Source: Ascidia mentula
Lineage: Eukaryota; Chordata; Ascidiacea; Phlebobranchia; Ascidiidae
Assembly (NCBI GenBank): GCA_947561715.1
Contig: OX387202.1
Coordinates: forward strand, 5,407,001 to 5,471,000
Direction: 5' to 3'
Length of the DNA stretch: 64,000 bases
Part shown: in pieces, positions 1-25,358 of the stretch
How positions within the stretch are numbered: position 1 is the first letter of the stretch
Layout: each line of letters starts with the position of its first letter
The notes under the pieces: generated by a model
Told to the model about the DNA's origin: nothing
Seen by the model: only the letters and a program-made list of their open reading frames with translations
Databases searched by the model: none
Translations under genes and position numbers: made by a program

Positions 1-1374
1 TCCGGCTCTCATCTGACAAACAGATCAGGAGTTTCGATGTTATGCGAGTTCACGACAAACCCAAGTTCGACTACGTTTGGGATGCGGGAACAATAATATA
101 CTTGGATATACCCAAGAAATATGTCCACTTTCTCGTAACAAATGCACTTTTCAAAAACAGAGGCTGTTCACCGCCAAACGTAACGGCACAAAAATGTAAA
201 ATGATTTGAGTTTTCTTCAAAAACCCGCCTAATTTACAACATTACAAATACCGCACAACACTTGGTTCGTGAAGATCTACGATAGCAAAATATTTTACCA
301 ACGGAATAAGTAAAGGGCAAAGGTAGGTATATCATATCGCACGCATTTACTTTCTGTCATATGCAGCACCTGTAGGCGAACCAATTGCACGTTTCGAATA
401 AGAAGCTGTGAATAATAATGGAATTGAATAATTGAACAAACCTGGTCAAACCAGATGCCTCCACCACATGTTCCGTTAGCATCCCAACCATTCGTCCAAA
501 TCCAATCGTAAATCTGCCGAGCTTCGTAAAGGAATCCAGTTGTAGGGTCGTCTTCCCCTGGACCAAGAATCTGTGCAAAAATTCACATGGCCATGTTTCA
601 ACGCGTGAATGCATTCGTACCCCAAAATTAACGTGTTCTGTATTGAATTTCAAATTCTGTCCTCAATCCACACTATTGTGTTCCAATGCAATCGCAAGCC
701 AATCAATACAACGTCCTACGTATTTAAACGTTTGAAATATGCAGACCATTTTGTGCATGGGTGTATTTGCTTTGTTTGTTTTACATTTACCTCATGGATT
801 CTTAGGTATCTCAATCCGTACCATGCCATGTCATCAAACGATAGCTGTGGGTAATAGGCTTCAAGCAGGCTGTACACATCTCTTAGAGATCCTGTCACAA
901 CTGATTTATACCTGAGATGTATCTACTGATCATGCATAGATTAAAAGGGAGTGTTTTGAGAGGACGTTGTTTTCTTTTTAAAGTTGTTTTGAAACAATTC
1001 ACAAACGTCGAAACATTTGATCTGTTTTGATTCCAACTGAGGTTTGTTCTTCAGGTTTGATCAAACGATAAAAAGTCACGTACTTATGTAACCATTATAA
1101 GGTTTGTTTATTTTTAGAAAGAATCACAGTCACAAAATCTTCTGTCGAAGAACTTACATTGAGTTATCACAACAGGCCGTAAAGTTATCCAGAGTCTCCA
1201 GGACTACACCATCTTGCCAGAACCCGTCGAAACCGTTCCAGGTTTGATAACTGAACAAACCAGCTATGGGAGACGGATACCAGTTGTACTGCAACGCGTA
1301 CGCAGCCAAGCATGACCGCAATGCGTTCGTGTCGTTTCCGAACGCTTCCGAGTTACAAACTTCGGTCATCGGAA
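1..1374 (-). CDS. GH76-like glycoside hydrolase, copy 1 (partial; 3' part outside window, no signal exon)
   Basis: Exons seen on the minus strand are 1158-1374, 791-911, 442-570 and the first 12 bases of the next (1-12). They equal exons 2-5 of the complete copy at 21,911-25,358, with the same splice sites and phases and no stop. The encoded segments include the YNWYPSPIAGLFSYQTWNG block, the FDDMAWYGL motif with the Asp-Asp pair that GH76 enzymes use for catalysis, and the GTCGGGIWFDQ block. Upstream of exon 2 no signal-peptide exon is found. Intron 1 sequence runs straight into a block that resembles the GNAT 3' flank. This copy may therefore be untranslatable as a secreted protein unless another first exon is used. 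Family assignment is firm from motif order; substrate is inferred only. Confidence 0.8.
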
Positions 1375-1389
1375 CTGCAAACAATATGC

Positions 1390-2140
1390 CGTTGTTAGGA
1401 ATAACAGCTCGTTATAGTAGAAAATCATAAAACTATAGGAATCAGCCTGTTCTTCTTGCTGGTAAGTGATGGATTACTCTATAGCACAAGATCGCACGCA
1501 TAGTCACACTCTATGAACGTTTATTCTATGCTCGATGAACTTTGCCTGTATTTATTTCGTCTGCGTTAACTCAATCCATGCCAATTTCATTTTCTGCTTT
1601 TTAAAAGCAAAGGAAAATTTGTAGTTGATTTTCATGTTTTGCCTCCACGTTAGACAAGGGGGCGCATAGAAAACTCACACAAATGCCACCGAACATATTT
1701 TAGTAATTGTTTTCGCCAGCAAACCATCATTCCTAAGAACAGGAGATCATTGTTTTTCCTGCACCGCTATACTGTTGAGTCAACAATCGTAGGTGGGGTA
1801 AAACTAACCAATAATCCAACTAATATACGCTAAAGTACGACGAAAGGAATCCCTATTTAATACATTAAGGTTTGGCGTATTTTTGGCTGGCAACGTTTTC
1901 AATTCAGTTGCCAAAATAACTTATTATTCGATGACCCAATGCTCAGGGCAAGGTTTGTACAAAATTATGAGATCAGCTTCAAGGCTGCTGCGGTTGCCAC
2001 GCTGTACCACTACGTCAGCCGTATTCAGTAAAGCGGAAAAGCGAAGAAAAAAGCTTGCATAAACTTGCCAGACCAAACCGAATGTACGGTCGGAAAGTCG
2101 GAAAATCGTAGGTCTAAAAGAGCTTATCAACTCAGTCGAC
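1390..2140. other. Divergent upstream region between hydrolase copy 1 and GNAT copy 1
   Basis: No gene is seen. The first part is the start of hydrolase intron 1. From about 1620 it turns into a diverged copy of the GNAT 3' flank followed by the block that also lies downstream of each GNAT (compare 1800-2130 with 3110-3440). Compared with GNAT copies 2 and 4, about 290 bases just before the start codon are missing here. A CTCAG sits 5 bases before the GNAT ATG and could act as a splice or trans-splice acceptor. Confidence 0.6.
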
Positions 2141-2806
2141 ATGAGTTTTATCTACCGAAAGTTAACTATGAATGACGTACACATCTGCCACCACATAGTG
2201 CAGAACTATTACCTGAAACATGTTCCTCACATAAAAGCATTCAAAGTCGATCCATCTGAGTTGGATGATATTTACAAGAACAGAGTAGAAATGATGATTA
2301 AAGCTGGAACATCTTTTGGTTGTTTTCAATCTGACACAGGTGAACCTGCATGTTTGTCATTCTGTAGGATTGTTACGAGTGACGACGAATTCCTTCTTCC
2401 ATTAAATCCGAATGTCGAATATTCGAAAACTGCGGAACAATGGATGCGATTTCGTGATGATTTGAAGAAAGATCTGTTCACTCTTTTGGGAACTGAAAAT
2501 TTTTTTCACAAAGAAATTGGTGTAACAACACCCAAGTATAGCAGGCTTGGTTTGTTTGCTGAATTGGACAACTTCACCGACCTACAAGCTGTTAACATGG
2601 ATTGTGAATACGCTGTGGCTGAACTACTTTCCGTTTACGCTCAGCGTGCAGCAGATAAGCGTGGATATAAAGTAATATACGAAATTCGATATCGTGATTA
2701 CGTTGATCCCGAAACTGGAGAGAAACCGCTTTCCGATTTTTATTCAGTTCATGAAAAGGTTCAATTGGTTTATCGAAGGCTGCTCGATTATCAAAGTGCA
2801 CTTTGA
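2141..2806 (+). CDS. GNAT/AANAT-like N-acetyltransferase, copy 1
   Basis: This is a single uninterrupted 221-codon reading frame from MSFIYRKLTMNDV to a TGA at 2804-2806. The architecture resembles the GCN5-related N-acetyltransferases of the arylalkylamine type: an N-terminal YRxLTxxD start, a central KAGTSFGCF strand with a TGEPACL turn, and a C-terminal GYKVxxEIRYRDYVDxETGEKPL block followed by HEKVQLVYRRL. The textbook acetyl-CoA loop is not obvious, so the substrate and even the activity are unproven. No introns are present. An AATAAA polyadenylation signal lies at 2936-2941. It is head-to-head with hydrolase copy 1 and tail-to-tail with copy 2. It differs from copies 2 and 4 at roughly twenty residues and lacks most of their 5' flank. 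Confidence 0.85.
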   Translation: MSFIYRKLTMNDVHICHHIVQNYYLKHVPHIKAFKVDPSELDDIYKNRVEMMIKAGTSFGCFQSDTGEPACLSFCRIVTSDDEFLLPLNPNVEYSKTAEQWMRFRDDLKKDLFTLLGTENFFHKEIGVTTPKYSRLGLFAELDNFTDLQAVNMDCEYAVAELLSVYAQRAADKRGYKVIYEIRYRDYVDPETGEKPLSDFYSVHEKVQLVYRRLLDYQSAL

Positions 2807-4238
2807 GGGATTTTGCTTTTGCTTTGTATTGACAACCATATTCTAAACAACAATATATATCTCCAGATTTCAGGATATTTACATTTTTTGTTTCACATTC
2901 ATTTTCATCCCACGATATATATAGCCATTATACTCAATAAATTTGTGGTTATTTTTTATGTTTTGTCTCCACGTTTGACGGGTTTTTGCGTAGAAAACTC
3001 ATAAAATTGCCACTGAATATATGTTAGTAATTGTTGTATTTCGGTTCGCAAACCACCATATCTTATAAGAGGAGTTCTTTCTTTTTTCTGCACCACTAAT
3101 GATTTGAGTAAACAAAAAGTAGTTGACCAATAAACCAGCTAATATACACTAAAGTGCGACGAAAGGAAATCTCCATTAATATATCAAGGGTTGACGTATT
3201 TCCGACGGGTAACGTTTTCAGTTCAGTTACAAAAATAACTTATTTTACGTTGACCCAATGCTCAGCACAAAGCTTGTTAACAATTATAAGGCCAGGTTTA
3301 AGGCTGATGCGGTTGCCACATTACCGCTACGGCAGCCGTATACAATTCGGAAAAAAAGTTAGACGTCACCATAATACATGGTGAAGTGGGGAAGCGGAGA
3401 AAAAAATACTTCAGACAGGAAAAGTCTGAAAACTTAGGGCTAAAATAGCTTATCAATGTCTTGGTTACGGAGTCAAGTTCACAGTAATTTTCCTGTTATG
3501 TGATTTATATTCAGAATTTATGTGTGCTGCTGTGTAATTGTGTTCAAATCATAAAGAAAGTATTTTCACTAGGTAAAAATGCTTTTAATGTCTGTTTTTA
3601 TCGTTCCACCCAAGTTCTACATGCTTAAGCGTCAACCTTTGTGTGATCAAATAAGTAAAAAGTGTACGTAGTAGTTCAGAAATGAACGAACTATCATCAC
3701 TTGATAACGCGCCTGACGCCAAATTGTTTGAACGACACATTGCGCCCTGTTCTTTAAACTTCTCACACCAGTTTCAACATTCACGCACCGTCGGTTCTTT
3801 GGTATGCAACTGAATAAAAGCGAATATTGGCTCCAAAGCTGGATTTTTTGTTCGTTGTTACTGAGCTTGTATTACTTACCTTGAACCCAATTAAAGCATG
3901 GATATAAAGTTATAAACGAAATTGACTACGTGAGCCCTAAACCTGGAGAGAAGCCCCTTTCCAATTTTTCTCCAGGGAGGTTAACAAAAGCCTATTAAAT
4001 AATAGAGCGCTATAAAAGCAAGTGGTTAGCAAATGCATTTGTCTGCGATATACACACAAACAAAGACCTTTACTTATTTTACCGAAACAAAATATTTAAT
4101 TGTGATGGAAATCTATTTTGCCTGATAACAATTACATTGACAATATATCAGGCACACCATGACGTTCCAAATATTTATTCTGGAATAACACTGATTTCTT
4201 ATGAAAAGGTAATTGACATTTTTGCATTGTATTATATA
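2807..4238. other. GNAT 3' flank plus second GNAT-upstream block
   Basis: It holds the polyadenylation signal of GNAT copy 1, then a block (about 2850-3540) that resembles the sequence upstream of the GNAT gene itself (1600-2130), and then a GNAT remnant described separately. Nothing else protein-coding was found. The same arrangement recurs at about 9172-10614 and 20479-21910. Confidence 0.7.
3890..3985 (+). pseudogene. GNAT remnant (C-terminal fragment)
   Basis: A short stretch reads as GYKVINEID followed by GEKPLSNFS and matches the C-terminal GYKV(I)xEIRYRDYV...GEKPLSDF block of the GNAT genes, with a small internal deletion and no open frame on either side. About 270 bases upstream a CGTCAACCTTTGTG stretch matches the 5' flank of the intact GNATs (CTGCCAACCTTTGTG), so this is the decayed second GNAT of the unit. 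Confidence 0.65.
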
Positions 4239-7200
4239 TTACACACACTCTCCATTTTGGCAAGTTTGCGTCGATTCACAGCAAGTGTAATAACCTTCTT
4301 CATATGTACAACATGGTTGGTCTGGAGGGCAGGGGTTATCCTGGCAGGTTAGAGGACTGGGTTGGGGTATCGGGGGGTCGTAATCACAGTAAGATCCGGT
4401 GCATTTTACCCCATCTGGTATTGATGAAACAAACAGGTCGAGAGATGCTGTTTGTTGAATGGGTGTAGAACAATTGTATGGGCCCGTATAATGAATGCCA
4501 AAAACCTGAACAATTAAAAATTCGTTTCAAATTGCAGAAATTTACCCTGAATTAAAAAAGGAAATCCTCAAGGCTTATTGTAATGTTAATATGATTTGAG
4601 ACAAGAGCTTTTCAGAACACTCTCGCATATCGGGAAAATGTTAAATGTTAAATATAGATACTTGAAAACTGGTTTTATTGTAATGAGAATTACATACTTG
4701 TATTTACAGTTAAGTAATTAGTTTATTTTGTAAAATATTTAAGTAACTTCTCCTACCGGGCCCAATGTGTTGTTGTGGAAGGGTCTCCCATCTGTGTAGA
4801 GGACGAGGCATTTCTCCTTACTAGGCTCACATCGATTTTGAGACCACGCGATGTCGCTATTGTGCTGCAAAATGTTGCGGTAGATTTCTATGTTTTCAGT
4901 CCATGACTCACAGTCTTCACTGGCATCTGTGTAGTCAATGAGGTAGCGCAGATGACGCATAAAAATTCCCTTGAATATTTTTTCGTCATCGTTGCATTTT
5001 GGTGCACAATATTCAACCAAAACACCGTTTCTAAAAAAAGACGATTTCCCTATGGTACTCCTAATTAAATACATTAACAATACTTATACCTGACCGGAAC
5101 CCATTTAAATCTATGTAATAATATTGAATTTAGAATCTAGTAAAAATATATGATGACGTTTCTTGTACAAAAAATTAGCTGATTTTTATTTTTGCAACAA
5201 CTTACTTTGTGGAATTGTGAATGGTTGTTAGCGCGATCTTGTGGGCAAGCGGAAACAACTCACTCGTCATGTTTAAAGCATTCCCAGCTTCCACCAACGC
5301 AGCTAAAGCAAGTTGCACTTATTGCACAAACATAGGCAAACACGTTACAATTCTTTATTGGTATATAAGTACATTAGACATGACCTAAAAAAATGGACCA
5401 CAAAATTGTGATGCCGAGTTGTCATTCTGCCAAGGGGTTTACGTAAATGTTTTGTAACTTTACAATCAAAACCGCACTTTAGGTTTCCAGCACTGCTCGA
5501 ACTCGCTAGCAATAGTTTCTTATATAAACCTCACATACTCATCATTAATCCCATGTTGTAAGTTGGTCCATAAACGTCATTACTTGAACAATTCGCGCTG
5601 ACTCCGTCCGCAACCCAATAATTTGTGGAGTTCACTATTTTAATGGAAAGTAGAAACTGCAAACATCACATTGGAATCGATTATTGTGGCTTAAAGTTTA
5701 AATAATTATCTTACAGAAATGCAGTTGAAAAATTATAGAGACCTATACATATTAAACCTGTGTTCAATATTAACATTCTGCATACTAGGAAAAGCGAAAT
5801 TTCAAGAAATTAGTTAGCTTGCGCCAACATATAAGTAGGTTACCTGCAAAGTTTGATTGATTTTCTGAATCAGGCTGTAGTCCCTGCTCAGCCTGTAAAG
5901 TTTCGATCCCAGCAGTAGAAATTGAGCATTTTCTACTGTTTGCTTTCCGGCTCTCATCTGACAAACAGATCAGGAGTTTCGATGTTATGCGAGTTCACGA
6001 CAAACCCAAGTTCGACTACGTTTGTGATGCGGGAACAATAATATACTTGGATATACCCAAGAAATATGTCCACTTTCTCGTAACAAATGCACTTTTCAAA
6101 AACAGCCAAACGTAACGGCACAAAAATGTAAAATGATTTGAGTTTTCTTCAAAAACTCGCCTAATTTACAACATTACAAATACCGCACAAAACTGGATTC
6201 GTGGCGATCTACGATTGCAAAATATTTTACCAACGGAATAAGTAACGTGCAAAGTTAGGTATATCATATCGCACGCATTTGCTTTCTGTAGAACTTCATA
6301 TGCAGCACGTGTACGCGAACCAATTGCACGTTTCGAATAATGAGCTGTGAATAATAATGGAAGTGAATAATTGAACAAACCTGGTCAAACCAGATGCCTC
6401 CACCACATGTTCCGTTAACATCCCAACCATTCGTCCAAATCCAGTCGTAAATCTGCCGAGCTTCGTAAAGGAAACCAGATGTAGGGTCGTCTTCCCCTGG
6501 CCCAAGAATCTGTGCAAAAATTCACAAGATGAAGCGTGTTTCACTGCGTCAATGCATTTGTGCCCCAACCTCAATCCACACTATTATGTTCCAAAGCAAT
6601 CGCAAGCCAATCAATGCAACGTCCTACGTAATTAAACTTTTGAAATATGCAGACCAGTTTGTGCATGGGTGTATTTGCTTTGTTTGTTTTACATTTACCT
6701 CATGGATTCTTAGGTAGCTCAATCCGTACCATGCCATGTCATCAAACGATGGCTGAGGGTAATAGGCTTCAAGCAGACTGTACACATCTCTTAGAGATCC
6801 TGTCACAACTGATTTATACCTGAGATGTATTTACTGATCATACACATATTTAAAAGGAGGGTTTTGAAAGGAGGTTGTTTCCCTTTTAAGGAGTTTTGTT
6901 TTTACAAACGTCGAAACATTTAAGCTGTTTTGATTCAAACTGAGTATTATTCCTCAGGTGATTTGATCAAACGATAAACAGTCACGTACCTATGTAACCA
7001 TTATAAGGTTTGTTTATTTTCAGAAAGAATCAAAGTCACAAAATCTTCTGCCGAATACTTACATTGAGTTATTACCATAGGCCGTAAAGTTGGCCAGAGT
7101 CTCCAGGACTGCACCATCTTGCCAGAACCCGTCGAAATCGTTCCAGGTTTGATAACTGAACAAACCAGCTATGGGAGACGGATACCAGTCGTACTGCAAT

Positions 7201-7279
7201 GCGTACGCAGCCAAGCATGACCGCAAAGCGTTCGTGTCGTTTCCGAACGCTTCCGAGTTACAAACTTCGGACATCGGAA
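4239..7279 (-). CDS. GH76-like glycoside hydrolase, copy 2 (exons 2-9 intact, signal exon missing)
   Basis: Minus-strand exons in transcript order: 7063-7279, 6699-6819, 6381-6509, 5844-5957, 5539-5656, 5206-5317, 4757-5030 and 4239-4505. Each has the same length as in the complete copy (217, 121, 129, 114, 118, 112, 274 and 267 bases), keeps GT-AG borders and stays in frame to a TAA at 4239-4241. GH76 blocks are visible: FDDMAWYGL, CGGGIWFDQ, ENAQFLLLGSKLYRL, DGVSANCSSNDVYGPTYN and the KIFKGIFMRHL segment, followed by the Cys-rich tail. No signal-peptide exon is found; the sequence where it should be is GNAT-flank DNA. Without another first exon, or splicing from the exon at 25.3 kb, it may not be made as a secreted protein. 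Confidence 0.8.
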
Positions 7280-7289
7280 CTGCAAACAA

Positions 7290-8505: not shown

Positions 8506-9171
8506 ATGAGTTTTATCTACCGAAAGTTAACTATGAATGACGTACTCATCTGTCACCGCATGGCACAAAACTATTACCTGAAACATGTTCCTCACATAAA
8601 AGCATTCAAAGTCGATCCATCAGAGTTGGATGATATTTACAAGAACAGAGTAGAAATGATGATTAAAGCTGGAACATCTTTTGGTTGTTTTCAATCTGAC
8701 ACAGGTGAACCTGCATGTTTGTTATTCTGTAGGATTGTTACGAGTGACGACAAATTCCTTCTTCCATTAAATCCGAATGTCGAATATTCGAAAACTGCGG
8801 AACAATGGATGCGATTTCGTGATCATTTGAAGAAAGATTTGTTCACTCTTTTGGAAACTGGAAAAAATTTTCACAAAGAAATTGGTGTAACAACACCCAA
8901 GTATAGCAGGCTTGGTTTGGTTAGTGAATTAGACAGCTTCACCGACCAACAAGCTGTGAAGATGGATTGTGAATACGCTGTGGCTGAACTACTTTTCTTT
9001 TACTCTCAACGTGCAGGAAATAAGCGTGGATATAAAGTAATATACGAAATTCGATATCGTGATTACGTTGATCCCGAAACTGGAGAGAAACCGCTTTCCG
9101 ATTTTTATTCAGTTCATGAAAAGGTTCAATTGGTTTATCGAAGGCTGCTCGATTATCCAAGTGCACTTTGA
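8506..9171 (+). CDS. GNAT/AANAT-like N-acetyltransferase, copy 2
   Basis: An intact intronless 221-codon frame starting MSFIYRKLTMNDVLIC and ending YPSAL. It has the same domain layout as copy 1: YRKLTMND start, KAGTSFGCF core strand, and GYKV-EIRYRDYVD-GEKPL C-terminal block. It keeps the full 5' flank, with a TTTTTCAG acceptor-like site about 17 bases before the ATG, which copy 1 lacks. It is closest to copy 4, with about fifteen substitutions spread along the protein and no stops. That suggests the sequence is still under coding constraint, although this was judged by eye. Role unknown; an N-acetyltransferase fold is the best guess. Confidence 0.85.
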   Translation: MSFIYRKLTMNDVLICHRMAQNYYLKHVPHIKAFKVDPSELDDIYKNRVEMMIKAGTSFGCFQSDTGEPACLLFCRIVTSDDKFLLPLNPNVEYSKTAEQWMRFRDHLKKDLFTLLETGKNFHKEIGVTTPKYSRLGLVSELDSFTDQQAVKMDCEYAVAELLFFYSQRAGNKRGYKVIYEIRYRDYVDPETGEKPLSDFYSVHEKVQLVYRRLLDYPSAL

Positions 9172-10254: not shown

Positions 10255-10345
10255 AAAGCATGGATATAAAGTTATAAACGAAATTGACTACGTGAGCCCT
10301 AAACCTAGAGAGAAGCCGCTTTCCAATTTTTTTCCAGGGAAGTTA
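10255..10345 (+). pseudogene. GNAT remnant (C-terminal fragment), second unit
   Basis: It is the counterpart of the fragment at 3890-3985, again reading GYKVINEID and then a GEKPLSNF-like end. It is followed by a short local duplication (TATTAAGCTGCTAAATAA repeated) that the other units lack. Confidence 0.6.
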
Positions 10346-10614: not shown

Positions 10615-12746
10615 TTACACACACTCTCCATTTTTGCAAGTTTGCGTCGATTCACAGCAAGTGTAATAACCTTCTTCGTATGTACAACATGGTTGGTCTG
10701 GAGGACAGGGGTTATCCTGGCAGGTTAGGGGACTGGGTTGGGGTATCGGGGGGTCGTATACGAATGTGACTGCAGTCACAGTGAGATTCGGTGCATTTTA
10801 CCCCATATTGATGAAACAAACAAGTCGAGAGACTGCTGTTTGTTGAATGGGTGTGGAACAATTGTACGGGCCCGTATAATGAATGCCATAAACCTCATAT
10901 CAGTTAAAAAAAAATGCGTTTCAAATTGCAGAAATTTACTCTGAATTAAATAACGAAATCCGCAAGGATTATTAGGAAAAATGTAAAATGGCAAAAATAG
11001 AAACTTGAAAAAGGGTTTTATTGTAGTGAGAATTACATATTTGAATTTAAAGCACAGTAATTAGTTTACATTGTTAAGTAAAATGGCCTACTGGGCCCAA
11101 TGTATTGTTGTGAAACGGTCTCCCATCTCTGTAGAGAACAATGCATTTCTCTTTACTAGGCTCACATCGATTTTGAGACCACGCGATGTCGCTATTGTGC
11201 TGCAAAAAGTTGCGGTAGATTTTTTGTTTTCAGTCCATGTTTCAGAGTCTTCACTGGCATCAGTGTAGTTAATGAGGTAGCGGAGATGACGCATAAAAAT
11301 TCCCTTCAACATTTTTTCGTCGTCGTTGCATTTCGGAGCACAATATTCCACTAAAACACCGTTCCTAAGAAAACACGTTTTTTTTTATTATACCCGTAAA
11401 TGATTACTTTCACAGCACTTAACGACACAAAAATGTGAAATAATCCGTGTTTTGTGACAAGGCGTATTTTAATTAGAACTCACCTAATTTAGAACATAAA
11501 ATGCAGTGCAACACTTCGTTCTTGAATTATTTTACCAACGGAATAAGTAACGTGCAAAGTTAGGTATATCATGTCGCATTTACTTTCTGTATAACTTCAT
11601 ATGCAGCACGTGTATGCGAACCAATTGCACGTTTCTAATAATCAGCTGTGAATAATAATGGAAGTGAATAATTGAACAAACCTGGTCAAACCAGATGCCT
11701 CCACCACATGTTCCGCTAACATCCCAACCATTCGTCCAAATCCAATCGTAAATCTGCCGAGCTTCGTAAAGGAAACCAGATGTAGGGTCGTCCTATCCCC
11801 TGGCCCAAGAATCTGTGCAAAAATTCACAAAATGAAGCGTGTTTCACTGCGTCAATACATTTGTACCCAACATTAAGGTGTTGTGTATATATTTGAATTT
11901 CTGTCGTCATTATATTCCAATGCAATCGCAAGCCAATTAATGAAACGTCCTACGTAATTAAACAACGCAGAAGTAATGCCATGCTTACGCATAGCAAGGC
12001 GGGATCGCCCCACTGCGCAGGCCCTTTATATTTGGCGATCACAGCTCTAATATTCTGATCATAAGGTTCACAGGCTTCGCAGCCAAGGCATTGCAGCCAA
12101 GCTGGATCAGCCACTCAGCCACTACGTAATTAAACGTTTGAAATATGCAAACTGTTGTGTGCATGGGTGTATTTGGTTTGTTTATTTTACATTTACCTCA
12201 TGGATTCTTAGGTAGCTCAATCGGTACCATGTCATGTCATCAAACGATGGCTGGGGACAATAGGTTTCAAGCAAGCTGTACACATCTCTTATTTGAGATG
12301 TACCTACTGATCATGCACAGATTTAAAAGGAGTGTTTTGAGAGGACGTTGTTCTCTTTTTGAAGTAGTTTTGTAAAAATTCACAAACGTCGAAACATTTG
12401 ATCTGTTTTGATTCCAACTGAGTTTTGTTCTTCAGGTGATTTGATCAAACGATAAAAAGTCACGTACTTACGTAACCATTATAAGGTTTGTTGATTTTAG
12501 AAAGAATCAATCTTCTGCCGAATACTTACATTGAATTATTACAATAGGCCGTAAAGTTGTCCAGAGTCTCCAGGACTGCACCATCTTGCCAGAACCCGTC
12601 GAAACCGTTCCAGGTTTGATAACTGAACAAACCAGCTATGGGAGACGGATACCAGTTGTACTGCAATGCGTACGCAGCCAAGCATGACCGCACTGCGTTC
12701 GTGTCGTTTCCGAACGCTTCCGTGTTACAAACTTCGGTCATCGGAA
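10615..12746 (-). pseudogene. GH76-like hydrolase, copy 3 (pseudogene)
   Basis: Recognisable exons in transcript order are exon 2 (12530-12746, intact), a truncated exon 3 (from 12197; its acceptor end is deleted), exon 4 (11682-11812, 2 bases too long, so out of frame), exon 8 (11092-11364, 1 base short) and exon 9 (10615-10893, with a net 12-base gain and an early stop). Exons 5-7 are absent: sequence jumps from the intron before exon 8 into intron 4. A 160-bp insertion with target duplication lies in intron 3. Several independent lesions and the missing signal exon make this a pseudogene with high confidence. Confidence 0.9.
11963..12122. mobile_element. 160-bp insertion with 12-14 bp target duplication (SINE-like)
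   Basis: The insertion interrupts the sequence CCTACGTAATTAAAC, which is uninterrupted at the same place in hydrolase copies 2 and 4 and nearly so in copies 1 and 5. TACGTAATTAAA stands on both sides (11951-11962 and 12123-12134). The length of the duplication suits target-primed retrotransposition. On the minus strand the insert begins GTGGCTGAGTGG, which resembles a tRNA A box; a convincing B box and a poly-A tail were not seen. It is relatively GC-rich compared with its surroundings. A tRNA-derived SINE is the best guess. Confidence 0.7.
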
Positions 12747-13777
12747 CTGCAAACAATATGCCGTTGTTAGGAATAACAGTTCGTTATAGTAGAAAATCAT
12801 AAAACTATAGGAATCAGCCTGTTCTTCTTGCTGGTAAGTGATGGATTACTCTATAGCACAAGATCGCACGCATAGTCACACTCTATGAACGTTTATTCTA
12901 TGCTCGATGAACTTTGCCTGTATTTATTTCGTCTGCGTTAACTCAATCCATGACAATTTCATTTTTCATTTTCATGTTTTGCCTCCACGTTAGACAAGGG
13001 GGCGCATAGAAAACTCATACAAATGCCACCGAACATATTTTAGTAATTGTTTTCGCAAGCAAACCATCATTCCTAAGAACAGGAGATCATTGTTTTTCCT
13101 GCACCGCTATTCTGTTGAGTCAACAATCGTAGGTGAGGTAAAACTAACCAATAATCCAACTAATATACGCTAAAGTACGACGAAAGAAATCCCTATTTAA
13201 TACAATAAGGTTTGGGGTATTTTTGGCTGGCAAAGTTTTCAGTTCAGTTGCCAAAATAACTTATTTTTCGATGACCCAATGCTCAGGGCAAGGTTTGTAC
13301 AAAATTATGAGATCAGCTTCAAGGCTGCTGCGGTTGCCACGCTGTACCACTACGTCAGCCGTATTTAGTAAAGCGGAAAAGCGAAGAAAAAAAGCTTGAA
13401 TAAACTTGCCAGACCAAACCGAATGTACGGTCGGAAAGTCGGAAAACCGTAGGTCTAAAAGAGCTTATCAGTCTCTTGGGTAGTGAGTCAGTTAATAGTG
13501 ATATGAACATAAGGTCTGTTTATAACATTTACATGCTCAATGCTCAACTGCCAACCTTTGTGCTATCAAACAAATGCATCAGAAGGAAGCAAAAAGATAA
13601 CTTTAGTAACTTTAATGCGCTTTGTTTCCAATAGACATTAGTATACAGCGGACAGAGTTTTTAACTTGGATACACAACCCTCAAGACTCTTCCTTGCCAA
13701 GGCAGTGATACAAACGGCCAATAAAATTGACACAGGTTCAGGAAAAATTACTTTTTTAGCTTTTGTGAAAGGTCGAC

Positions 13778-15595: not shown

Positions 15596-18500
15596 TTACA
15601 CACACTCTCCATTTTTGCAAGTTTGCGTCGATTCACAGCAAGTGTAATAACCTTCTTCATATGTACAACATGGTTGGTCTGGAGGGCACGGGTTATCCTG
15701 GCAGGTTAGGGGACTGGGCTGAGGTATCGGGGGGTCGTAGTCACAGTAAGATCCGGTGCATTTTACCCCATCTGGTATTGATGAAACAAACAAGTCGAGA
15801 GATGCTGTTTGTTGAATGGGTGTAGAACAATTGTATGGGCCCGTATAATGAATGCCAAAAACCTGAACAATCAAAAATTCGTTTCAAATTGCAGAAATTT
15901 ACTTTGAATTAAAAAAGGAAATCCTCAAGGCTTATTGTAATGTTAATATGATTTGAGATAAGAGCTTTTCAGAACACTCTCGCATATCGGGAAAATGTTA
16001 AATGGTAAATATAAATACTTGAAAACTTGTTTTATTGTAATGAGAATTACATACTTGTATTTACAGTTAAGTAATTAGTTTATTTTGTAAAATATTTAAG
16101 TAACTTCTCCTACCGGGCCCAATGTGTTGTTGTGGAAGGGTCTCCCATCTGTGTAGAGGACGAGGCATTTCTCCTTACTAGGCTCACATCGATTTTGAGA
16201 CCACGCGATGTCGCTATTGTGCTGCAAAAAGTTGCGGTAGATTTCTATGTTTTCAGTCCATGACTCACAGTCTTCACTGGCATCTGTGTAGTCAATGAGG
16301 TAGCGCAGATGACGCATAAAAATTCCCTTGAATATTTTTTCGTCGTCGTTGCATTTTGGTGCACAATATTCAACCAAAACACCGTTTCTAAAAAAAGACG
16401 ATTTTCCCTATGGTACTACTAATTAAATACATTAACAATACTTATACCTGACCGGAACCCATTTAAATCTATGTAATAATATTGAATTTAGAATCTAGTA
16501 AAAATATCTGCTGAAGTTTCTTGTACAACAAATGAATTGATTTTTATTTTTGCAAAACTTACTTTGTGGAGTTGTGAATGGTTGTTAGCGCGATCTTGTG
16601 GGCAAGCGGAAACAACTCACTCGTCATGTTTAAAGCATTCCCAGCTTCCACCAACGCAGCTAAAGCAAGTTGCACTTATTGCACAAACATAGGCAAACAC
16701 GTTACAATTCTTTATTGGTATTTAAGTACATTAGACATGACCTAAAAAAATGGACCACAAAATTGTGATGCCGAGTTGTCGTTCTGCCAAGGGATTTACG
16801 TAAATGTTTTGTAACTTTACAATTAAAACCGCACTTTAGGTTTCCAGCACTGCTCGAACTCGCTAGCAATAGTTTCTTATATAAACCTCACATACTCATC
16901 ATTAATCCCATATTGTAAGTTGGACCATAAACGTCATTGCTTGAACAGTTCGCGCTGACTCCGTCCGCAACCCAATAGTTTGTGGAGTTCACTATTTTAT
17001 TGGAAAGTAGAAACTGCAAACACCACATTGGAATCGATTATTGTGGCTTAAAGTTTAAATAATTATCTTACAGAAATGCAGTTGAAAAATTATAGAGACC
17101 TATACATATTAAACTTTGTTCAATATTAACATTCTGCATACTAGGAAAAGCGAAATTTCAAGAAATTAGTTAGCTTGCGCCAACATATAAGTAGGTTACC
17201 TGCAAAGTTTGATTGATTTTCTAAATCAGGCTGTAGTCCCTGCTCAGCCTGTAAAGTTTCGATCCCAGCAGTAGAAATTGAGCATTTTCTACTGTTTGCT
17301 TTCGGGCTCTCATCTGACAAACAGATCAGGAGTTTCGATGTTATGCGAGTTCACGACAAACCCAAGTTCGATTACGTTTGTGATGCGGGAACAATAATAT
17401 ACTTGGATATACCCAAGAAATATGTCCACTTTCTCGTCACAAATGCACTTTTCAAAAACGGAGGCTGTTCACCGCTAAACGTAACGGCACAAAAATGTAA
17501 AATGATTCGAGTTTTCTTCAAAAACTCGCCTAATTTACAACATTACAAATACCGCACAAAACTGGATTCGTGGCGATCTACGATTGCAAAATATTTTACC
17601 AACGGAATAAGTAACGTGCAAAGTTAGGTATATCATATCGCACGCATTTGCTTTCTGTATAACTTCATATGCAGCACGTGTACGCGAACCAATTGCACGT
17701 TTCGAATAATGAGCTGTGAATAATAATGGAAGTGAATAATTGAACAAACCTGGTCAAACCAGATGCCTCCACCACATGTTCCGCTAACATCCCAACCATT
17801 CGTCCAAATCCAGTCGTAAATCTGCCGAGCTTCGTAAAGGAAACCAGATGTAGGGTCGTCCTCCCCTGGCCCAAGAATCTGTGCAAAAATTCACAAGATG
17901 AAACATGTTTCACCGCTTCAATGCATTTGTGCTCCAACATTGACGTGTTCTGTATTGAATTTCAAATTCTGTCCTCAATCCACACTATTATGTTCCAAAG
18001 CAATCGCAAGCCAATCAATGCAACGTCCTACGTAATTAAACCGTTGAAATATGCAGACCAGTTTGTGCATGGGTGTATTTGCTTTGTTTGTTTTACATTT
18101 ACCTCATGGATTCTTAGGTAGCTCAATCCGTACCATGCCATGTCATCAAACGATGGCTGGGGATAATAGGCTTCAAGCAGACTGTACACATCTCTTAGAG
18201 ATCCTGCCACAACTGATTTATACCTGAGATGTATTTACTGATCATGCACAGATTAAAAAAGAATGTTTTGAGAAGACGTTGTTTTCCTTTTAAAAGTAGT
18301 TTTGTAAAAATTCACAAACGTCGAAACATTTTAAGCTGTTTTGAATGTAAGTGAGTTTTGTTCCTTAGGTGATTTGATCAAACGATAAATAGTCACGTAC
18401 TTATGTAACCATTATAAGGTTTGTTATTTTTAGAAAGAATCACAGTCACAAAATCTTCTGTCGAATACTTACATTGAGTTATTACCATATGCCATAAAGT

Positions 18501-18684
18501 TGGCCAGAGTCTCCAGGACTACACCATCTTGCCAGAACCCGTCGAAACCGTATCAGATAACAGAACAAGTCAGTTATGGGAGACGGATACCAGTTGTACT
18601 GCAATGCGTACGCAGCCAAGCATGACCGCAAAGCGTTCGTGTCGTTTCCGAACTCTTCCGAGTTACAAACTTCGTCCATGGGAA
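15596..18684 (-). pseudogene. GH76-like hydrolase, copy 4 (pseudogene)
   Basis: All exons 2-9 are present with conserved borders: 18473-18684, 18103-18223, 17750-17878, 17200-17313, 16896-17013, 16563-16674, 16114-16387 and 15596-15862. Two lesions stop translation. Exon 2 is 5 bases short (212 instead of 217), which shifts the frame after PSPI, and exon 5 carries a TAG where the complete copy has CAG (Q in SLIQKI). The signal exon is also missing. The remaining exons, including the FDDMAWYGL motif and the Cys-rich tail, look normal, so inactivation is probably recent. Confidence 0.85.
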
Positions 18685-19812
18685 CTGCAAACAAAATGGC
18701 GTTGTTGGGAATAACAGTTCGTTATAGTAGAAAATGTTAAAATTACAGGAATCAGCCTGGTCTCCTTGTTGGTAAGTGATGTATTACGCTATAGCACAAG
18801 ATCGCACGCATAGTCACTCTCTATGGACGATTTTTCCATGCTCGATATAGTTTGTCTGTATTTATTTCGTCTGCGTCAACTCTATCCATGCTAATTTCAA
18901 TTTCTGCTTTCAAAAGCAAAGGAATTGCTCAACAATTATGTGGATTTTTATTTCTTACCCAGTTCAATGGCAATGCGTTATGTATTGGTATGCCTTATTC
19001 TAAACAACAATAAAAATGTCCAGATTTTAGGATAATCCCTTTTTTGTTACACATTCATTTTCAGCCCTGCCACTGAACATATTTTTGTAATTGTTGCGTT
19101 TCAGTTAGCAAAACACCATTCCTAAGACCAGGAGATCATTCTTTTTCCTGCCACACTATAATGTTGAGTCAACAAACGTAGGTGAGGTAAAACTGACCAA
19201 TAATCCAACTAACGCTAAAGTGCGACGAAAGGAATCCCTATTTAATATATTAAGGTTTGGCGTATTTTTGGCTGGCAACGTTTTCATTTCAGTTGCCAAA
19301 ATAACCTATTTTACGTTGACTCAACGCTCAGGGCAACGTTTGTACAAAATTATGAGATCAGGTTCAAGACTGCTGCGGTTGCCACGCAGTACCACTACGT
19401 CAGCCGTATTTCCTGAAGCGGAAAACGAAGAAAAAGTGCTTGAGAAAACTTACTAGACCAAACCGCATGTACTGGTAAAGTCTGAAAACCGTAGGTCTAA
19501 AAGAGCCTATCAGTCTCTTGGTTAGTGAGTCAGTTAGTTGTGATATGAACAAAAGTTCTGTTCATAACATTTACATGCTCAATGCTCAACTGCCAACCTT
19601 TGTGCTATCAAACAAATGCATCAGAAGAAAACCAAAAGATAAGTTTGGTAATTTTAATGCGCTTTGTTTCCAACAGACATACAGCGGACAGAATTTTTAA
19701 CTTAGATACACGACCCTCAAGTCTCTTCCTTGCCAAGCCAGTGATACAAACGGCCAATAAGATTGACACAGGTTCAAGAAAAAATATTTTTCAGCTTTTG
19801 TGAAAGGTCGAC

Positions 19813-20478
19813 ATGAGTTTTATCTACCGAAAGTTAACTATGAATGACGTACTCATCTGTCACCGCATGGTACAAAACTATTACCTGAAACATGTTCCTC
19901 ACATAAAAGCATTCAAAGTCGAACCATCAGAGTTGGAAGATATTTACAAGAAGAGAGTAGAAATGATGATTAAAGCTGGAACATCTTTTGGTTGTTTTCA
20001 ATCTGCCACAGGTGAACCTGCATGTTTGTTCTTCTGTAGGATTGTTACGAGTGACGACAAATTCCTTCTTCCATTAAATCGGAATGTCGAATATTCGAAA
20101 ACTGCGGAACAATGGATGCGATTTCGTGATCATTTGAAGAAAGATTTGTTCACTCCTTTGGAAACTGAAAAAATATTTCACAAAGAAATTGGAGTAACAA
20201 CACCCAAGTATAGCAGGCTTGGTTTGGTTAGTGAATTAGACGGCTTCACCGACCAACAAGCTGTGAAGATGGATTGTGAATACGCTGTGGCTGAACTACT
20301 TTCGTTTTACTCTCAACGTGCAGGAGATAAGCGTGGATATAAAGTAATACACGAAATTCGATATCGTGATTACGTTGATCCCGAAACTGGAGAGAAACCG
20401 CTTTCCGATTTTTATTCAGTTCATGAAAAGGTTCAATTGGTTTATCGAAGGCTGCTCGATTATCCAAGTGCACTTTGA
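19813..20478 (+). CDS. GNAT/AANAT-like N-acetyltransferase, copy 4
   Basis: An intact intronless 221-codon frame (MSFIYRKLTMNDVLIC to YPSAL), closest to copy 2. It shares the YRKLTMND start, KAGTSFGCF strand, PKYSRLGLVSELD segment and the GYKV-EIRYRDYVD-GEKPLSD C-terminal block typical of AANAT-like GNATs. It lies head-to-head with broken hydrolase copy 4 and tail-to-tail with the complete hydrolase copy 5. The 5' flank has the same TTTTTCAG acceptor-like site before the ATG as copy 2. Substrate unknown. Confidence 0.85.
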   Translation: MSFIYRKLTMNDVLICHRMVQNYYLKHVPHIKAFKVEPSELEDIYKKRVEMMIKAGTSFGCFQSATGEPACLFFCRIVTSDDKFLLPLNRNVEYSKTAEQWMRFRDHLKKDLFTPLETEKIFHKEIGVTTPKYSRLGLVSELDGFTDQQAVKMDCEYAVAELLSFYSQRAGDKRGYKVIHEIRYRDYVDPETGEKPLSDFYSVHEKVQLVYRRLLDYPSAL

Positions 20479-21564
20479 GGGATTTTGCTTTTGCTTTGTA
20501 TTGACAACCATATTCTAAACAACAATATATATCTCCACATTTCAGGATATTTACATTTTTTGTTTCACATTCATTTTCAGCCCACGATATATGTAGCCAT
20601 TATACTCAATAAATTTGTGGTTAATTTTTATGTTTTGTCTCCACGTTTGACGGGCTTTTGCGTAGAAAACTCATAAAATTGCCACTGAATATATGTTAGT
20701 AATTGTTGTATTTCGGTTCGCAAACCACCATATCTTATAAGAGGAGTTCTTTCTTTTTTCTGCACCACTAATGATTTGAGTAAACAAAAGGTAGTTAACC
20801 AATAAACCAACTAATATACACTAAAGTGCGACGAAAGGAAATCTCTATTAATATATGAAGGGTTGACGTATTTACGACTGGTAACGTTTTCAGTTCAGTT
20901 GCAAAAATAACTTATTTTACATTGAACCAATGCTCAACACAAAGCTTGTTCAAAATTATGAGGCCAGGTTTAAGGCTGATGCGGTTGTCACATGACCGCT
21001 ACGGCAGCCGTATACAATTCGGAAAAAAAGTTAGACGTCACCATAATACATGGTGAAGTGGGGAAGCGGAGAAAAAAATACTTCAGACAGGAAAAGTCTG
21101 AAAACTTAGGGCTAACATAGCTTATCAATGTCTTGGTTACGGAGTCAAGTTCACAGTAATTTTCCAGTTATGTTATTTATATTTAGAATTTATGTGTGCT
21201 GCTGTGTCATTGTGTTCAAATCATAAAGAAAGTATTTTCACTAGGTAAAAATGCTTTTAATGTCTGTTTTTATCGTTCCACCCAAGTTCTACATGCTTAA
21301 GCGTCAACCTTTGTGTGATCAAATAAGTAAAAAGTGTACGTAGTAGTTCAGAAATGAACGAACTATCATCACTTGATAACGCGCCTGACGCCAAATTGTT
21401 TGAACGACACATTGCGCCCTGTTCTTTAAACTTCTCACACCAGTTTCAACATTCACGCACCGTCGGTTCTTTGGTATGCAACTGAATAAAAGCGAATATT
21501 GGCTCCAAAGCTGGATTTTCTGTTCGTTGTTACTGAGCTTGTATTACTTACCTTGAACCCAATT

Positions 21565-21910: not shown

Positions 21911-24900
21911 TTACACACACTCTCCATTTTGGCAAGTTTGCGTCGATTCACAGCAAGTGTAATAACCTTCTTCATATGTACAACATGGTTGGTCTGGAGG
22001 ACAGGGGTTATCCTGGCAGGTTAGAGGACTGGGTTGGGGTATCGGGGGGTCGTAGTCACAGTAAGATCCGATGCATTTTACCCCATCTGGTATTGATGAA
22101 ACAAACAAGTCGAGTGATGCTGTTTGTTGAATGGGTGTAGAACAATTGTATGGGCCCGTATAATGAATGCCAAAAACCTGAACAATTAAAAATTCGTTTC
22201 AAATTGCAGAAATTTACCCTGAATTAAAAAAGGAAATCCTCAAGGCTTATTGTAATGTTAATATGATTTGAGACAAGAGCTTTTCAGAACACTCTCGCAT
22301 ATCGGGAAAATGTTAAATGGTAAATATAAATACTTGAAAACTGGTTTTATTGTAATGAGAATTACATACTTGTATTTACAGTTAAGTAATTAATTTATTT
22401 TGTAAAATATTTAAGTAACTTCTCCTACCGGGCCCAATGTGTTGTTGTGGAAGGGTCTCCCATCTGTGTAGAGGACGAGGCATTTCTCCTTACTAGGCTC
22501 ACATCGATTTTGAGACCACGCGATGTCGCTATTGTGCTGCAAAAAGTTGCGGTAGATTTCTATGTTTTCAGTCCATGACTCACAGTCTTCACTGGCATCT
22601 GTGTAGTCAATGAGGTAGCGCAGATGACGCATAAAAATTCCCTTGAATATTTTTTCGTCATCGTTGCATTTTGGTGCACAATATTCAACCAAAACACCGT
22701 TTCTAAAAAAAGACGATTTTCCCTATTATACTCCTAATTAAATACATTAACAATACTTATACCTGACCGGAACCCATTTAAATCTATGTAATAATATTGA
22801 ATTTAGAATCTAGTAAAAATATCTGCTGAAGTTTCTTGTACAACAAATGAATTGATTTTTATTTTTGCAAAACTTACTTTGTGGAGTTGTGAATGGTTGT
22901 TAGCGCGATCTTGTGGGCAAGCGGAAACAACTCACTCGTCATGTTTAAAGCATTCCCAGCTTCCACCAACGCAGCTAAAGCAAGTTGCACTTATTGCACA
23001 AACATAGGCAAACACGTTACAATTCTTTATTGGTATTTAAGTACATTAGACATGACCTAACAAATGGACCACAAAATTGTGATGCCGAGTTGTCATTCTG
23101 CCAAGGGATTTACGTAAATGTTTTGTAACTTTACAATTAAAACCGCACTTTAGGTTTCCAGCACTGCTCGAACTCGCTAGCAATAGTTTCTTATATAAAC
23201 CTCACATACTCATCATTAATCCCATATTGTAAGTTGGACCATAAACGTCATTGCTTGAACAGTTCGCGCTGACTCCGTCCGCAACCCAATAGTTTGTGGA
23301 GTTCACTATTTTATTGGAAAGTAGAAACTGCAAACACCACATTGGAATCGATTATTGGGGCTTAAAGTTTAAATAATTATCTTACAGAAATGCAGTTGAA
23401 AAATAATAGTGACCTACACATATTAAACCTTTGTTCAATATTAACATTCTGCATACTAGGAAAAGCGAAATTTCAAGAAATTAGTTAGCTTGCGCCAACA
23501 TATAAGTAGGTTACCTGCAAAGTTTGATTGATTTTCTGAATCAGGCTGTAGTCCCTGCTCAGCCTGTAAAGTTTCGATCCCAGCAGTAGAAATTGAGCAT
23601 TTTCTACTGTTTGCTTTCCGGCTCTCATCTGACAAACAGATCAGGAGTTTCGATGTTATGCGAGTTCACGACAAACCCAAGTTCGACTACGTTTGGGATG
23701 CGGGAACAATAATATACTTGGATATACCCAAGAAATATGTCCACTTTCTCGTAACAAATGCACTTTTCAAAAACAGAGGCTGTTCACCGCCAAACGTAAC
23801 GGCACAAAAATGTAAAATGATTTGAGTTTTCTTCAAAAACCCGCCTAATTTACAACAGTACAAATACCGCACAACACTTGGTTCGTGAAGATCTACGATA
23901 GCAAAATATTTTACCAACGGAATAAGTAAAGGGCAAAGTTAGGTATATCATATCGCACGCATTTACTTTCTGTCATATGCAGCACCTGTAGGCGAACCAA
24001 TTGCACGTTTCGAATAAGAAGCTGTGAATAATAATGGAATTGAATAATTGAACAAACCTGGTCAAACCAGATGCCTCCACCACATGTTCCGTTAGCATCC
24101 CAACCATTCGTCCAAATCCAGTCGTAAATCTGCCGAGCTTCGTAAAGGAATCCAGTTGTAGGGTCGTCTTCCCCTGGACCAAGAATCTGTGCAAAAATTC
24201 ACATGGCCATGTTTCAACGCGTGAATGCATTCGTACCCCAAAATTAACGTGTTCTGTATTGAATTTCAAATTCTGTCCTCAATCCACACTATTGTGTTCC
24301 AAAGCAATCGCAAGCCAATCAATACAACGTCCTACGTATTTAAACGTTTGAAATATGCAGACCATTTTGTGCATGGGTGTATTTGCTTTGTTTATTTTAC
24401 ATTTACCTCATGGATTCTTAGGTAACTCAATCCGTACCATGCCATGTCATCGAACGATGGCTGAGGGTAATAGGCTTCAAGCAGGCTGTACACATCTCTT
24501 AGAGATCCTGTCACAACTGATTTATACCTGAGATGTATTTACTGATCATACACATATTTAAAAGGAGGGTTTTGAAAGGACGTTGTTTTCCTTTTAAAGG
24601 AGTTTTGTTTTTACAAACGTCGAAACATTTAAGCTGTGTTGATTCTAAGTGAATTTTGTTCTTTAGGTGATTTGAGTAAACGATAAAAAGTCACGTACTT
24701 ATGTAACCATTATAAGTTTGTTTATTTTTAGAAAGAATCACGGTCACAAAATCTTCGGCCGAATACCTACATTGAATTATTACCATAGGCCATAAAGTTG
24801 GCCAGAGTCTCCAGGACTACACCATCTTGCCAGAACCCGTCGAAACCGTTCCAGGTTTGATAACTGAACAAACCAGCTATGGGAGACGGATACCAGTTGT

Positions 24901-25358
24901 ACTGCAACGCGTACGCAGCCAAGCATGACCGCACTGCGTTAGTGTCGTTTCCGAACGCTTCCGAGTTACAAACTTCGGCCATCGGAACTGCAAACAACAT
25001 GCCGTTGTTAGGAATAACAGCTCGTTATAGTAGAAAATTATGAAATTATAAAAATCAGCCTGTTCTTCTTGCTGGTAAGTGATGTATTACTCTATAGCAC
25101 AAAATCGCACGCATAGTCAGTCTCTATGGACGTTTATTCTATGCTCGACATCGTTTGTCTGTATTTATTTCGTCTGCGTTAACTCAATCCATGCCAATTT
25201 CATTTTCTGCTTTTAAAAGGACAGGAATTGTTCAACAATTGTGTGGGTTTTAAATTCTTACCTTGGTAAAAATGGAAGTTCATTTTCGCACGGTTGATTT
25301 CTATGGATGCAGAAGCAAATATAAGCAGTGTGAAGATAATTAACACACGAATCTCCAT
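21911..25358 (-). CDS. Secreted GH76 (alpha-1,6-mannanase-like) hydrolase, complete copy 5
   Basis: Nine exons join in frame to 482 codons: 25262-25358, 24771-24987, 24407-24527, 24058-24186, 23515-23628, 23210-23327, 22878-22989, 22429-22702 and 21911-22177; every phase matches. Residues 1-18 (MEIRVLIIFTLLIFASAS) are a signal peptide. GH76 landmarks follow in order: WYPSPIAGLFSYQTWNGFD near 60, FDDMAW at 130-135 with the family's Asp-Asp catalytic pair, CGGGIWFDQ at about 180, ENAQFLLLGSKLYRL, DGVSANCSSNDVYGPTYN, and EYCAPKCNDDEKIFKGIF near 310. Residues 430-482 form a tail with about ten Cys (NPCPPDQPCC, YYTCC, NGECV) after a Pro-rich linker, unlike plain GH76 enzymes. GH76 is known mainly from fungi and bacteria, where it cleaves alpha-1,6-mannan. 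It is the only array copy with a signal exon. Confidence 0.88.

What the first reader, a model, noticed from the sequence alone, without database searches (positions are those of the whole stretch)
1..25358. Alternating array of a GH76 hydrolase and a GNAT acetyltransferase on opposite strands
Two unrelated families are co-amplified as one unit: a secreted mannanase-like enzyme and a cytosolic-looking N-acetyltransferase. Each GNAT shares an upstream region with one hydrolase and faces the next tail-to-tail. All four seen GNATs stay open while most hydrolase copies decay, so selection may act mainly on GNAT dosage, with hydrolases carried along. I know of no described cluster of this pair.
Basis: partly seen in the sequence, partly recalled or inferred. 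Interest (0 to 1): 0.8.

Follow-up and report, generated by a model that had tools for sequence, protein, structure and literature searches.

The report
Sea-squirt mannanase–acetyltransferase tandem array
In a sea squirt's chromosome a sugar-cutting enzyme gene and an acetyltransferase-like gene were copied together several times, but most enzyme copies lost the piece that looks needed for secretion, so this is mostly ordinary gene-cluster amplification and decay.

Summary
The array is real. The window lies on chromosome 6 of the ascidian Ascidia mentula; the array extends about 15 kb left of the window and ends at 25358. Each roughly 6-kb unit holds one single-exon, divergent aaNAT-like gene (+) and one GH76 gene (−). 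A genome search found GH76 nowhere else. Only the rightmost GH76 (21914-25358) has exon 1, with the signal-like sequence. Copies A and B keep exons 2-9 but lack it; C and D also carry stops or frameshifts.

The low GH76 value sits in exons 3-9, where introns of copy A are also unusually like those of E; exon 2, next to the lost exon, is near neutral. I read this as gene conversion overwriting truncated copies, not as proof of their function. GNAT frames are kept open more than drift predicts (P about 0.003).

Best reading: a GNAT tandem cluster (87 of 100 family matches clustered) captured one GH76 gene; unequal crossing-over amplified the pair. Bold alternative: spliced-leader trans-splicing, whose leader is abundant here, rescues exon-1-less copies.

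The parts
2141..2806 (+). GNAT/aaNAT-like gene 1, single exon, open 221 aa; about 290 nt of upstream sequence present before genes 2-4 are missing here
   Evidence: family profile match to insect aaNAT structures; upstream alignment
8506..9171 (+). GNAT/aaNAT-like gene 2, open 221 aa
13778..14443 (+). GNAT/aaNAT-like gene 3, older type (69% aa identity to gene 1), open
19813..20478 (+). GNAT/aaNAT-like gene 4, open 221 aa
1..1375 (-). GH76 copy A, 5' part (exons 2-4 and the start of exon 5; the rest of exon 5 and exons 6-9 lie left of the window to -1702); exons 2-9 intact, exon 1 absent
4242..7280 (-). GH76 copy B, exons 2-9 intact with splice sites, exon 1 absent; intron-1 donor sequence still present near 7561
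10618..12747 (-). GH76 copy C, decayed: exons 5-7 not found, stop in exon 4, frameshifts in exons 8 and 9
15599..18685 (-). GH76 copy D, decayed: frameshift in exon 2, stop in exon 5; exon 1 absent
21914..25358 (-). GH76 copy E, complete nine-exon gene model, predicted 478 aa, Pfam Glyco_hydro_76 E = 2.8e-24
25263..25358 (-). GH76 exon 1 of copy E with hydrophobic N-terminus (signal-peptide-like); the only copy found in the 104-kb stretch and in the genome-wide search
24773..24988 (-). GH76 exon 2 of copy E; its 3' splice site and an ATG 5 nt downstream are kept in A, B, C, D and E
24407..24514 (-). GH76 exon 3 of copy E, with the Asp pair (FDDMAW) that aligns with that of CtGH76
1615..2129 (.). 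R1: region between GH76 intron 1 and the GNAT; about 75-77% identical to R2
2939..3344 (.). R2: region downstream of the GNAT, alike to R1; with its neighbourhood it holds a decayed GH76 exon-8 relic on the - strand (2918-3050 by protein; same at 9257-9415 and 20564-20722)
3894..3968 (+). GNAT fragment relic just past the 3' end of GH76 copy B; same at 10256 and 21566, none found beside copy D

Best explanation
This is a tandem array produced by repeated unequal crossing-over inside a cluster of single-exon aaNAT-like (GNAT-superfamily) genes in Ascidia mentula that also contains the genome's only GH76 gene found. The founding duplication broke at about the exon 1/intron 1 boundary of the GH76 gene, so the amplified units carried one GNAT plus a GH76 without its first exon. 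Only the rightmost GH76 still has that exon and most likely makes a secreted GH76 enzyme (alpha-1,6-mannan hydrolase kind). The truncated copies are mostly passengers, overwritten in much of exons 3-9 by gene conversion from functional GH76 sequence, while their 5' ends drift and some acquire stops. The GNATs keep open frames but their amino-acid sequence evolves quickly. SHOWN: anatomy, a single GH76 locus in the search made, exon-1 loss, substitution patterns. INFERRED: crossing-over and conversion as mechanism, which copy is original, secretion, substrate, passenger status.
For: All 46 GH76 matches fall at C70:5397828-5432358 (whose counts are lower bounds; one search adds one weak exon-8 hit at window -14865, E = 0.002). 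Exon 1 is found only at 25263-25358. B and D share intron 1 with E up to the donor and then switch to GNAT-flank-like sequence; A and C are deleted there. Divergence from E is 7.9-12.0% in intron 1 and 7.8-11.4% in intron 2, but for copy A only 0.5-2.9% in introns 3-8, with patchwork similarity A-E and B-D. Exon 2 among A, B, C, E: 12N:5S, omega about 0.66. Exons 3-9 among A, B, D, E: 11N:27S plus one stop left out, omega about 0.11; Fisher p = 0.007. Of 100 GNAT-family matches, 87 lie in clusters of two or more, so tandem growth is this family's habit. GH76 domain E = 2.8e-24, Asp pair conserved. GNAT identity: profile of 13 family members hits an aaNAT structure at E = 2.6e-14.
Against: Branch-specific omega for truncated copies A (0.21) and B (0.17) is as low as for E (0.16), which by itself would suggest they work; the conversion argument is needed to set it aside, and the exon-2 contrast rests on 17 changes. 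For B and D the fall in divergence is uneven: intron 3 still differs from E by 8.1% and 8.2%, and intron 7 of B by 6.9%. All five copies keep the intron-1 acceptor and an ATG 5 nt later. No expression data were available.
Confidence: 0.6

Rival explanations
1. Exon-1-less GH76 copies are functional: intron 1's 3' splice site became a trans-splice acceptor, the spliced leader is joined to exon 2, and translation starts at the ATG 5 nt downstream, giving a leaderless (cytosolic) GH76 protein.
For: The Ciona spliced leader plus GT (up to 1 mismatch) occurs 2,323 times in this genome (1,070 + 1,253) against 1 for the reversed control. The acceptor TTTGCAG and the ATG are kept in A-E. Omega is 0.17-0.21 on branches A and B.
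Against: The predicted protein has 20 cysteines in 478 residues, which argues against a cytosolic product. Exon 2 is near neutral. Conversion can explain the low omega in exons 3-9. A crude scan found no trans-splice-acceptor signature upstream of the single-exon GNAT family: 2 of 27 distinct upstreams against 11% in controls.
Confidence: 0.1
2. One reading: selection on GNAT dosage drives the array and hydrolases hitch-hike.
For: Five GNATs (four in window, one to the left) are open. P(no stop and no frameshift under neutrality) is about 0.003 for the four recent copies. Within each recent pair the coding sequence differs less than the 3' flank (1.5% against 2.7%, 2.6% against 3.4%). Deeper GNAT pairs have dN/dS 0.40-0.51. 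Truncated GH76 copies look like passengers.
Against: The four recent GNAT copies do not reject omega = 1 (0.74, LRT 0.74; 35N:13S, binomial p = 0.29). Between the two recent GNAT clades coding divergence (4.8-5.9%) exceeds 3' flank divergence (2.3-4.2%) in 4 of 4 pairs. Gene 1 has lost about 290 nt of upstream sequence.
Confidence: 0.18
3. All GH76 copies are served by E's exon 1 through long-range splicing of read-through transcripts, since all lie downstream of it on the same strand.
For: Strand and order fit, and intron-1 acceptors are kept.
Against: Each body has its own stop codon and is separated from the next by an oppositely oriented GNAT; no transcript evidence was examined and no precedent was sought.
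Confidence: 0.04
4. The array is partly an assembly artefact (unpurged haplotypes).
For: Ascidians are often highly polymorphic (recalled).
Against: GH76 copies differ in structure and by 3.5-15.6% over introns; the record is a curated HiFi/Hi-C assembly, QV 64.9; copies are in one contiguous stretch without N in the 104 kb read.
Confidence: 0.04

Closest known systems
Glycoside hydrolase family 76 (Pfam PF03663); PDB CtGH76 9r4k and alpha-1,6-mannanases 4boj/4d4a
   Same: Domain match E = 2.8e-24 over residues 83-375; aligned Asp pair; best solved relative CtGH76 E = 4.8e-15, 4boj E = 1.3e-4
   Different: Nine-exon animal gene with a cysteine-rich C-terminal extension (about 60 aa) without Pfam match; embedded in a GNAT array
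Insect arylalkylamine/dopamine N-acetyltransferases (PDB 4fd5, 6v3t, Dat 5gif/6k80)
   Same: Family profile matches along most of the length, E = 2.6e-14 to 6e-6 for the nine best
   Different: No Pfam acetyltransferase match for 13 of 13 family members tested; columns of Dat Glu47 and Ser182 are not Glu/Ser in 13 of 13; large tandem expansion
Tandem multi-gene segmental duplication with pseudogenisation and gene conversion (birth-and-death arrays; recalled kind)
   Same: Repeated unit, graded decay, patchy homogenisation
   Different: Unit combines two unrelated families, and one partner lost its signal-like exon at the founding break
Bivalve GH76 cluster reported in MolluscDB (PMC8059625, one passage read)
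   Same: GH76 in a marine animal group of filter feeders
   Different: Listed there among Bivalvia-restricted protein clusters; no GNAT linkage mentioned in the passage

Membership tests
GH76 (PF03663) | Domain score over the curated cut-off | tested here: met
   86.7 bits against 25.9 on the spliced protein of copy E
GH76 (PF03663) | Adjacent catalytic Asp pair | tested here: met
   D127-D128 align with the Asp pair of CtGH76; kept in A-E. That these are the catalytic residues is recalled.
GH76 (PF03663) | Alpha-1,6-mannanase or related activity | not testable with these tools
   needs enzyme assay
GH76 (PF03663) | Secretion signal | tested here: inconclusive
   Hydrophobic N-terminus in exon 1 of copy E only; no signal-peptide predictor was run
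Insect-type aaNAT (GNAT superfamily) | Profile similarity along the domain | tested here: met
   E = 2.6e-14 for arylalkylamine N-acetyltransferase 2 (4fd5); a single window protein alone gave only E = 0.037
Insect-type aaNAT (GNAT superfamily) | Match to a Pfam acetyltransferase model | tested here: not met
   0 of 13 members at E up to 0.5
Insect-type aaNAT (GNAT superfamily) | Catalytic Glu47, Ser182 and Ser186 of Dat (PMC7427786) | tested here: not met
   Glu in 0 of 13 and Ser in 0 of 13 at the first two aligned columns; Ser in 8 of 13 at the third. Alignment is remote, so columns carry some uncertainty.
Insect-type aaNAT (GNAT superfamily) | Ac-CoA loop glycine (RxxGxG type) | tested here: not met
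   First Gly is Arg in the 4 window copies; Gly in 3 of 13. The motif is recalled.
Insect-type aaNAT (GNAT superfamily) | GNAT fold | tested here: inconclusive
   Structure model from 4 window sequences has mean pLDDT 35.5, unusable
Two-gene tandem array | Repeated unit at regular spacing | tested here: met

The most novel reading that the evidence does not exclude
Loss of the signal exon turned the amplified GH76 copies into spliced-leader trans-spliced genes. The orphaned intron-1 acceptor takes the leader and translation starts at the ATG 5 nt inside exon 2, so that one segmental duplication created a set of leaderless GH76 proteins paired with catalytically altered GNATs. This would be a route by which trans-splicing rescues 5'-truncated gene duplicates in a chordate.
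Probability: 0.08. Interest if true: 0.75.

Novelty: new member of a known kind. Interest (0 to 1): 0.35.

Why it matters
It documents a nine-exon GH76 gene in a chordate; one full-text search (ascidian + GH76) gave a single paper, on a fungus. It gives a case where a duplication break strips a signal-like exon from the later copies while gene conversion can keep the rest looking constrained, a warning for reading low dN/dS as proof of function in arrays. It also makes a specific idea testable: whether spliced-leader trans-splicing can rescue 5'-truncated duplicates. The aaNAT-like family's growth without the standard catalytic residues is a separate open question.

Tried and rejected
Rejected or fruitless: (1) PF03663 genome search exon by exon gave no match, probably because the exons are short; the spliced protein worked. 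(2) Structure prediction of the GNAT from the four window sequences was too poor to search with (mean pLDDT 35.5). (3) Two scans of prokaryote genomes for GH76 relatives confirmed none (0 of 5 and 0 of 35 pattern matches), so the origin of GH76 (transfer or ancestral) is unresolved. (4) Alternative secretory first exons upstream of exon 2: the scan gave 0 candidates in A and C and one weak one each in B and D, none convincing. (5) Trans-splice-acceptor signature for the GNAT family: 2 of 27 against 11% control, no signal. (6) The arthropod cuticle family was absent, but its control rang nowhere, so it is not evidence; organism identity rests on the mitochondrial contig and the genome note. (7) An older whole GH76 copy in the R regions: only exon 8 gave a relic there; the lone exon-9 hit merely abuts copy D. 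(8) Signals of positive selection on GNATs: the branch to gene 2 (8506) has more replacement change, LRT 3.48 for one of four branches tested, not significant.

Dropped before counts: copy C was used only for exon 2; copy D's exon 2 was left out and masked from the frameshift on; stop codons were skipped in dN/dS; GNAT copies -12477 and 13778 were left out of the recent-copy tests; 9 of the 23 paralogue frames printed went into the family alignment.
Full report
Source. The window is G000:C70:5407001-5471000 of a 195.8-Mb genome in 79 contigs. The COX1 contig C79 is 19,461 bases and reads best with the ascidian code, AGR = Gly. The genome note for Ascidia mentula gives 197.0 Mb in 95 scaffolds, nine chromosomes, a 19.46-kb mitochondrion, and chromosome 6 of 21.17 Mb (PMC11109543, passages read), matching C70 (21,170,000 bases). 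Total span and contig number differ slightly from the copy held here. I take the organism to be A. mentula, kaAscMent1.

Anatomy. Four open 221-aa frames on the + strand (2141, 8506, 13778, 19813) alternate with GH76 genes on the − strand. The GH76 gene in full (copy E) has nine exons from 25358 to 21914 with splice signals at each boundary. Its predicted 478-aa product scores E = 2.8e-24 against Pfam Glyco_hydro_76 and E = 4.8e-15 against CtGH76, PDB 9r4k, with the Asp pair aligned. Copies A and B keep exons 2-9 and splice sites. C has no recognisable exons 5-7 and is broken in others. D has a frameshift in exon 2 and a stop in exon 5. Exon 1, with the hydrophobic N-terminus, is found at 25263-25358 and nowhere else in the genome-wide search; all 46 GH76 matches of that search lie at C70:5397828-5432358 (its counts are lower bounds). 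To the left, outside the window, lie further units: GNATs at −5902 (open) and −12477 (one stop), GH76 relics and GNAT fragments back to about −15.3 kb.

Unit structure. The regions upstream (R1) and downstream (R2) of the GNATs are about 75-77% alike. A decayed piece of GH76 exon 8 is recognisable in R2 of three of the four in-window units (after genes 1, 2 and 4) and in R1 of copy B, with E from 3.6e-10; R1 of A and D give only weak hits (E 0.14 and 0.05), and R1 of C and the region after gene 3 none. Of 300 block-shuffled controls 0 reached 1e-6 and 2 reached 1e-3. A GNAT fragment lies past the 3' end of five of six GH76 copies (Z, a decayed copy left of the window, A, B, C, E; not D). So the present units were built on an older, decayed mixture of both genes. 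In B and D the similarity to E runs through intron 1 to the donor and then changes to GNAT-flank-like sequence; A and C have a deletion there. The founding break was therefore at or near the end of exon 1.

What the GNAT is. None of the four window proteins has a Pfam match over cut-off, and none of 13 family members matches an acetyltransferase model. One window protein alone finds aaNAT structures only at E = 0.037. A profile of 13 (4 from the window, 9 of the 23 paralogue frames) finds insect arylalkylamine N-acetyltransferases, E = 2.6e-14 for 4fd5 and about 6e-6 for Drosophila Dat. Dat's proposed catalytic residues are Glu47, Ser182 and Ser186 (PMC7427786, passages read). The aligned columns hold Glu in 0 of 13, Ser in 0 of 13, and Ser in 8 of 13 respectively. 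The glycine of the acetyl-CoA loop is Arg in the four window copies. This is a remote member of the aaNAT kind with doubtful standard chemistry.

Selection. One-ratio ML on four recent GNATs (−5902, 2141, 8506, 19813) gives omega 0.74, LRT against 1 = 0.74. On GH76 A, B, D, E it gives 0.195, LRT 33.2. Pairwise NG86 values agree: 0.58-1.97 for the recent GNAT pairs, 0.40-0.51 for deeper GNAT pairs, 0.10-0.24 for GH76. Two results temper it. First, with a neutral indel rate taken from GH76 introns, four GNAT frames without stop or frameshift have P about 0.003 (about 0.09 for stops alone), so open frames are favoured. Coding sequence differs less than the 3' flank within the two recent GNAT pairs, but more than the flank in all four comparisons between them. 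Second, the GH76 signal is not uniform: exon 2 (A, B, C, E) 12N:5S against exons 3-9 (A, B, D, E) 11N:27S, Fisher p = 0.007. Introns 1 and 2 differ from E by 7.8-12.0%, whereas introns 3-8 differ by 0.5-2.9% for A, 1.2-8.1% for B and 0.9-8.2% for D, in patches. The simplest account is that truncated 5' ends are old and drifting, while much of the rest is replaced by conversion from functional GH76 sequence, which carries the mark of selection. Against this, branch omegas for A and B are individually low (0.21, 0.17), and the fall in divergence along B and D is uneven, so function of these copies is not excluded.

Trans-splicing. The 16-nt Ciona spliced leader (recalled; two papers hold the string, seen in the listing only) followed by GT occurs 2,323 times here with up to one mismatch, control 1. 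Spliced-leader RNA genes are therefore very probably present. All five in-window GH76 copies keep the intron-1 acceptor with an ATG 5 nt later, so a leaderless product is possible in principle. The GNAT family shows no acceptor signature by a crude scan (2 of 27, control 11%), and the GH76 protein has 20 cysteines, which does not suit the cytosol. I give this reading 8-10%.

Conclusion. The array is real, correctly described and larger than the window. Its making is ordinary: tandem growth of a gene family that grows in tandem anyway, with one unrelated neighbour carried along, cut at its first exon and probably patched by conversion. The presence of GH76 in an ascidian and the possible rescue by trans-splicing are the parts worth following. 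Literature searches made; no listed title or abstract start named a GH76-GNAT pair, but only listings, abstracts and passages were read.

Noticed in passing
G000:C1:15239664-15292838 and genome-wide: The Ciona-type spliced leader plus GT (up to 1 mismatch) occurs 2,323 times (control 1), partly in tandem at about 720-base period, suggesting SL-RNA gene arrays in A. mentula.
   Followed up: partly
G000:C1:6585698-6601987: Another array of the same GNAT family, eight matches with alternating strands (+-+-+-+-), unit about 4.8 kb; no GH76 match there.
   Followed up: no
G000:C70:16302604-16307218 (L019, L020): Two GNAT paralogues 4 kb apart with identical predicted proteins and identical upstream 60 nt, suggesting a very recent duplication or conversion.
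   Followed up: no
window 52577-53029 (-) and 59721-60134 (+): Two nearly identical EF-hand-coding stretches in inverted orientation about 7 kb apart.
   Followed up: no
window 61993-63372 (-): Exon-like frames resembling the transmembrane region of a neurotransmitter-gated ion channel (PF02932, E = 9e-6 and 0.003, both under the curated cut-off).
   Followed up: no
window 48191-49241 (+): A hydrophobic segment and, further on, a Pro/Gln/Tyr-rich repetitive stretch (PYPQTQ repeats) in exon-like frames; no family match over cut-off.
   Followed up: no
window, just upstream of 2141: GNAT gene 1 lacks about 290 nt of upstream sequence shared by the other three in-window units, including a tttttcag-like stretch 18 nt before the ATG.
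   Followed up: partly
window about 7625-7825 (-), 2918-3050, 9257-9415, 20564-20722: Decayed GH76 exon-8 relics near several GNATs; no other GH76 exon left a relic there, so exon 8 with its flank was copied separately or outlasted the rest.
   Followed up: partly
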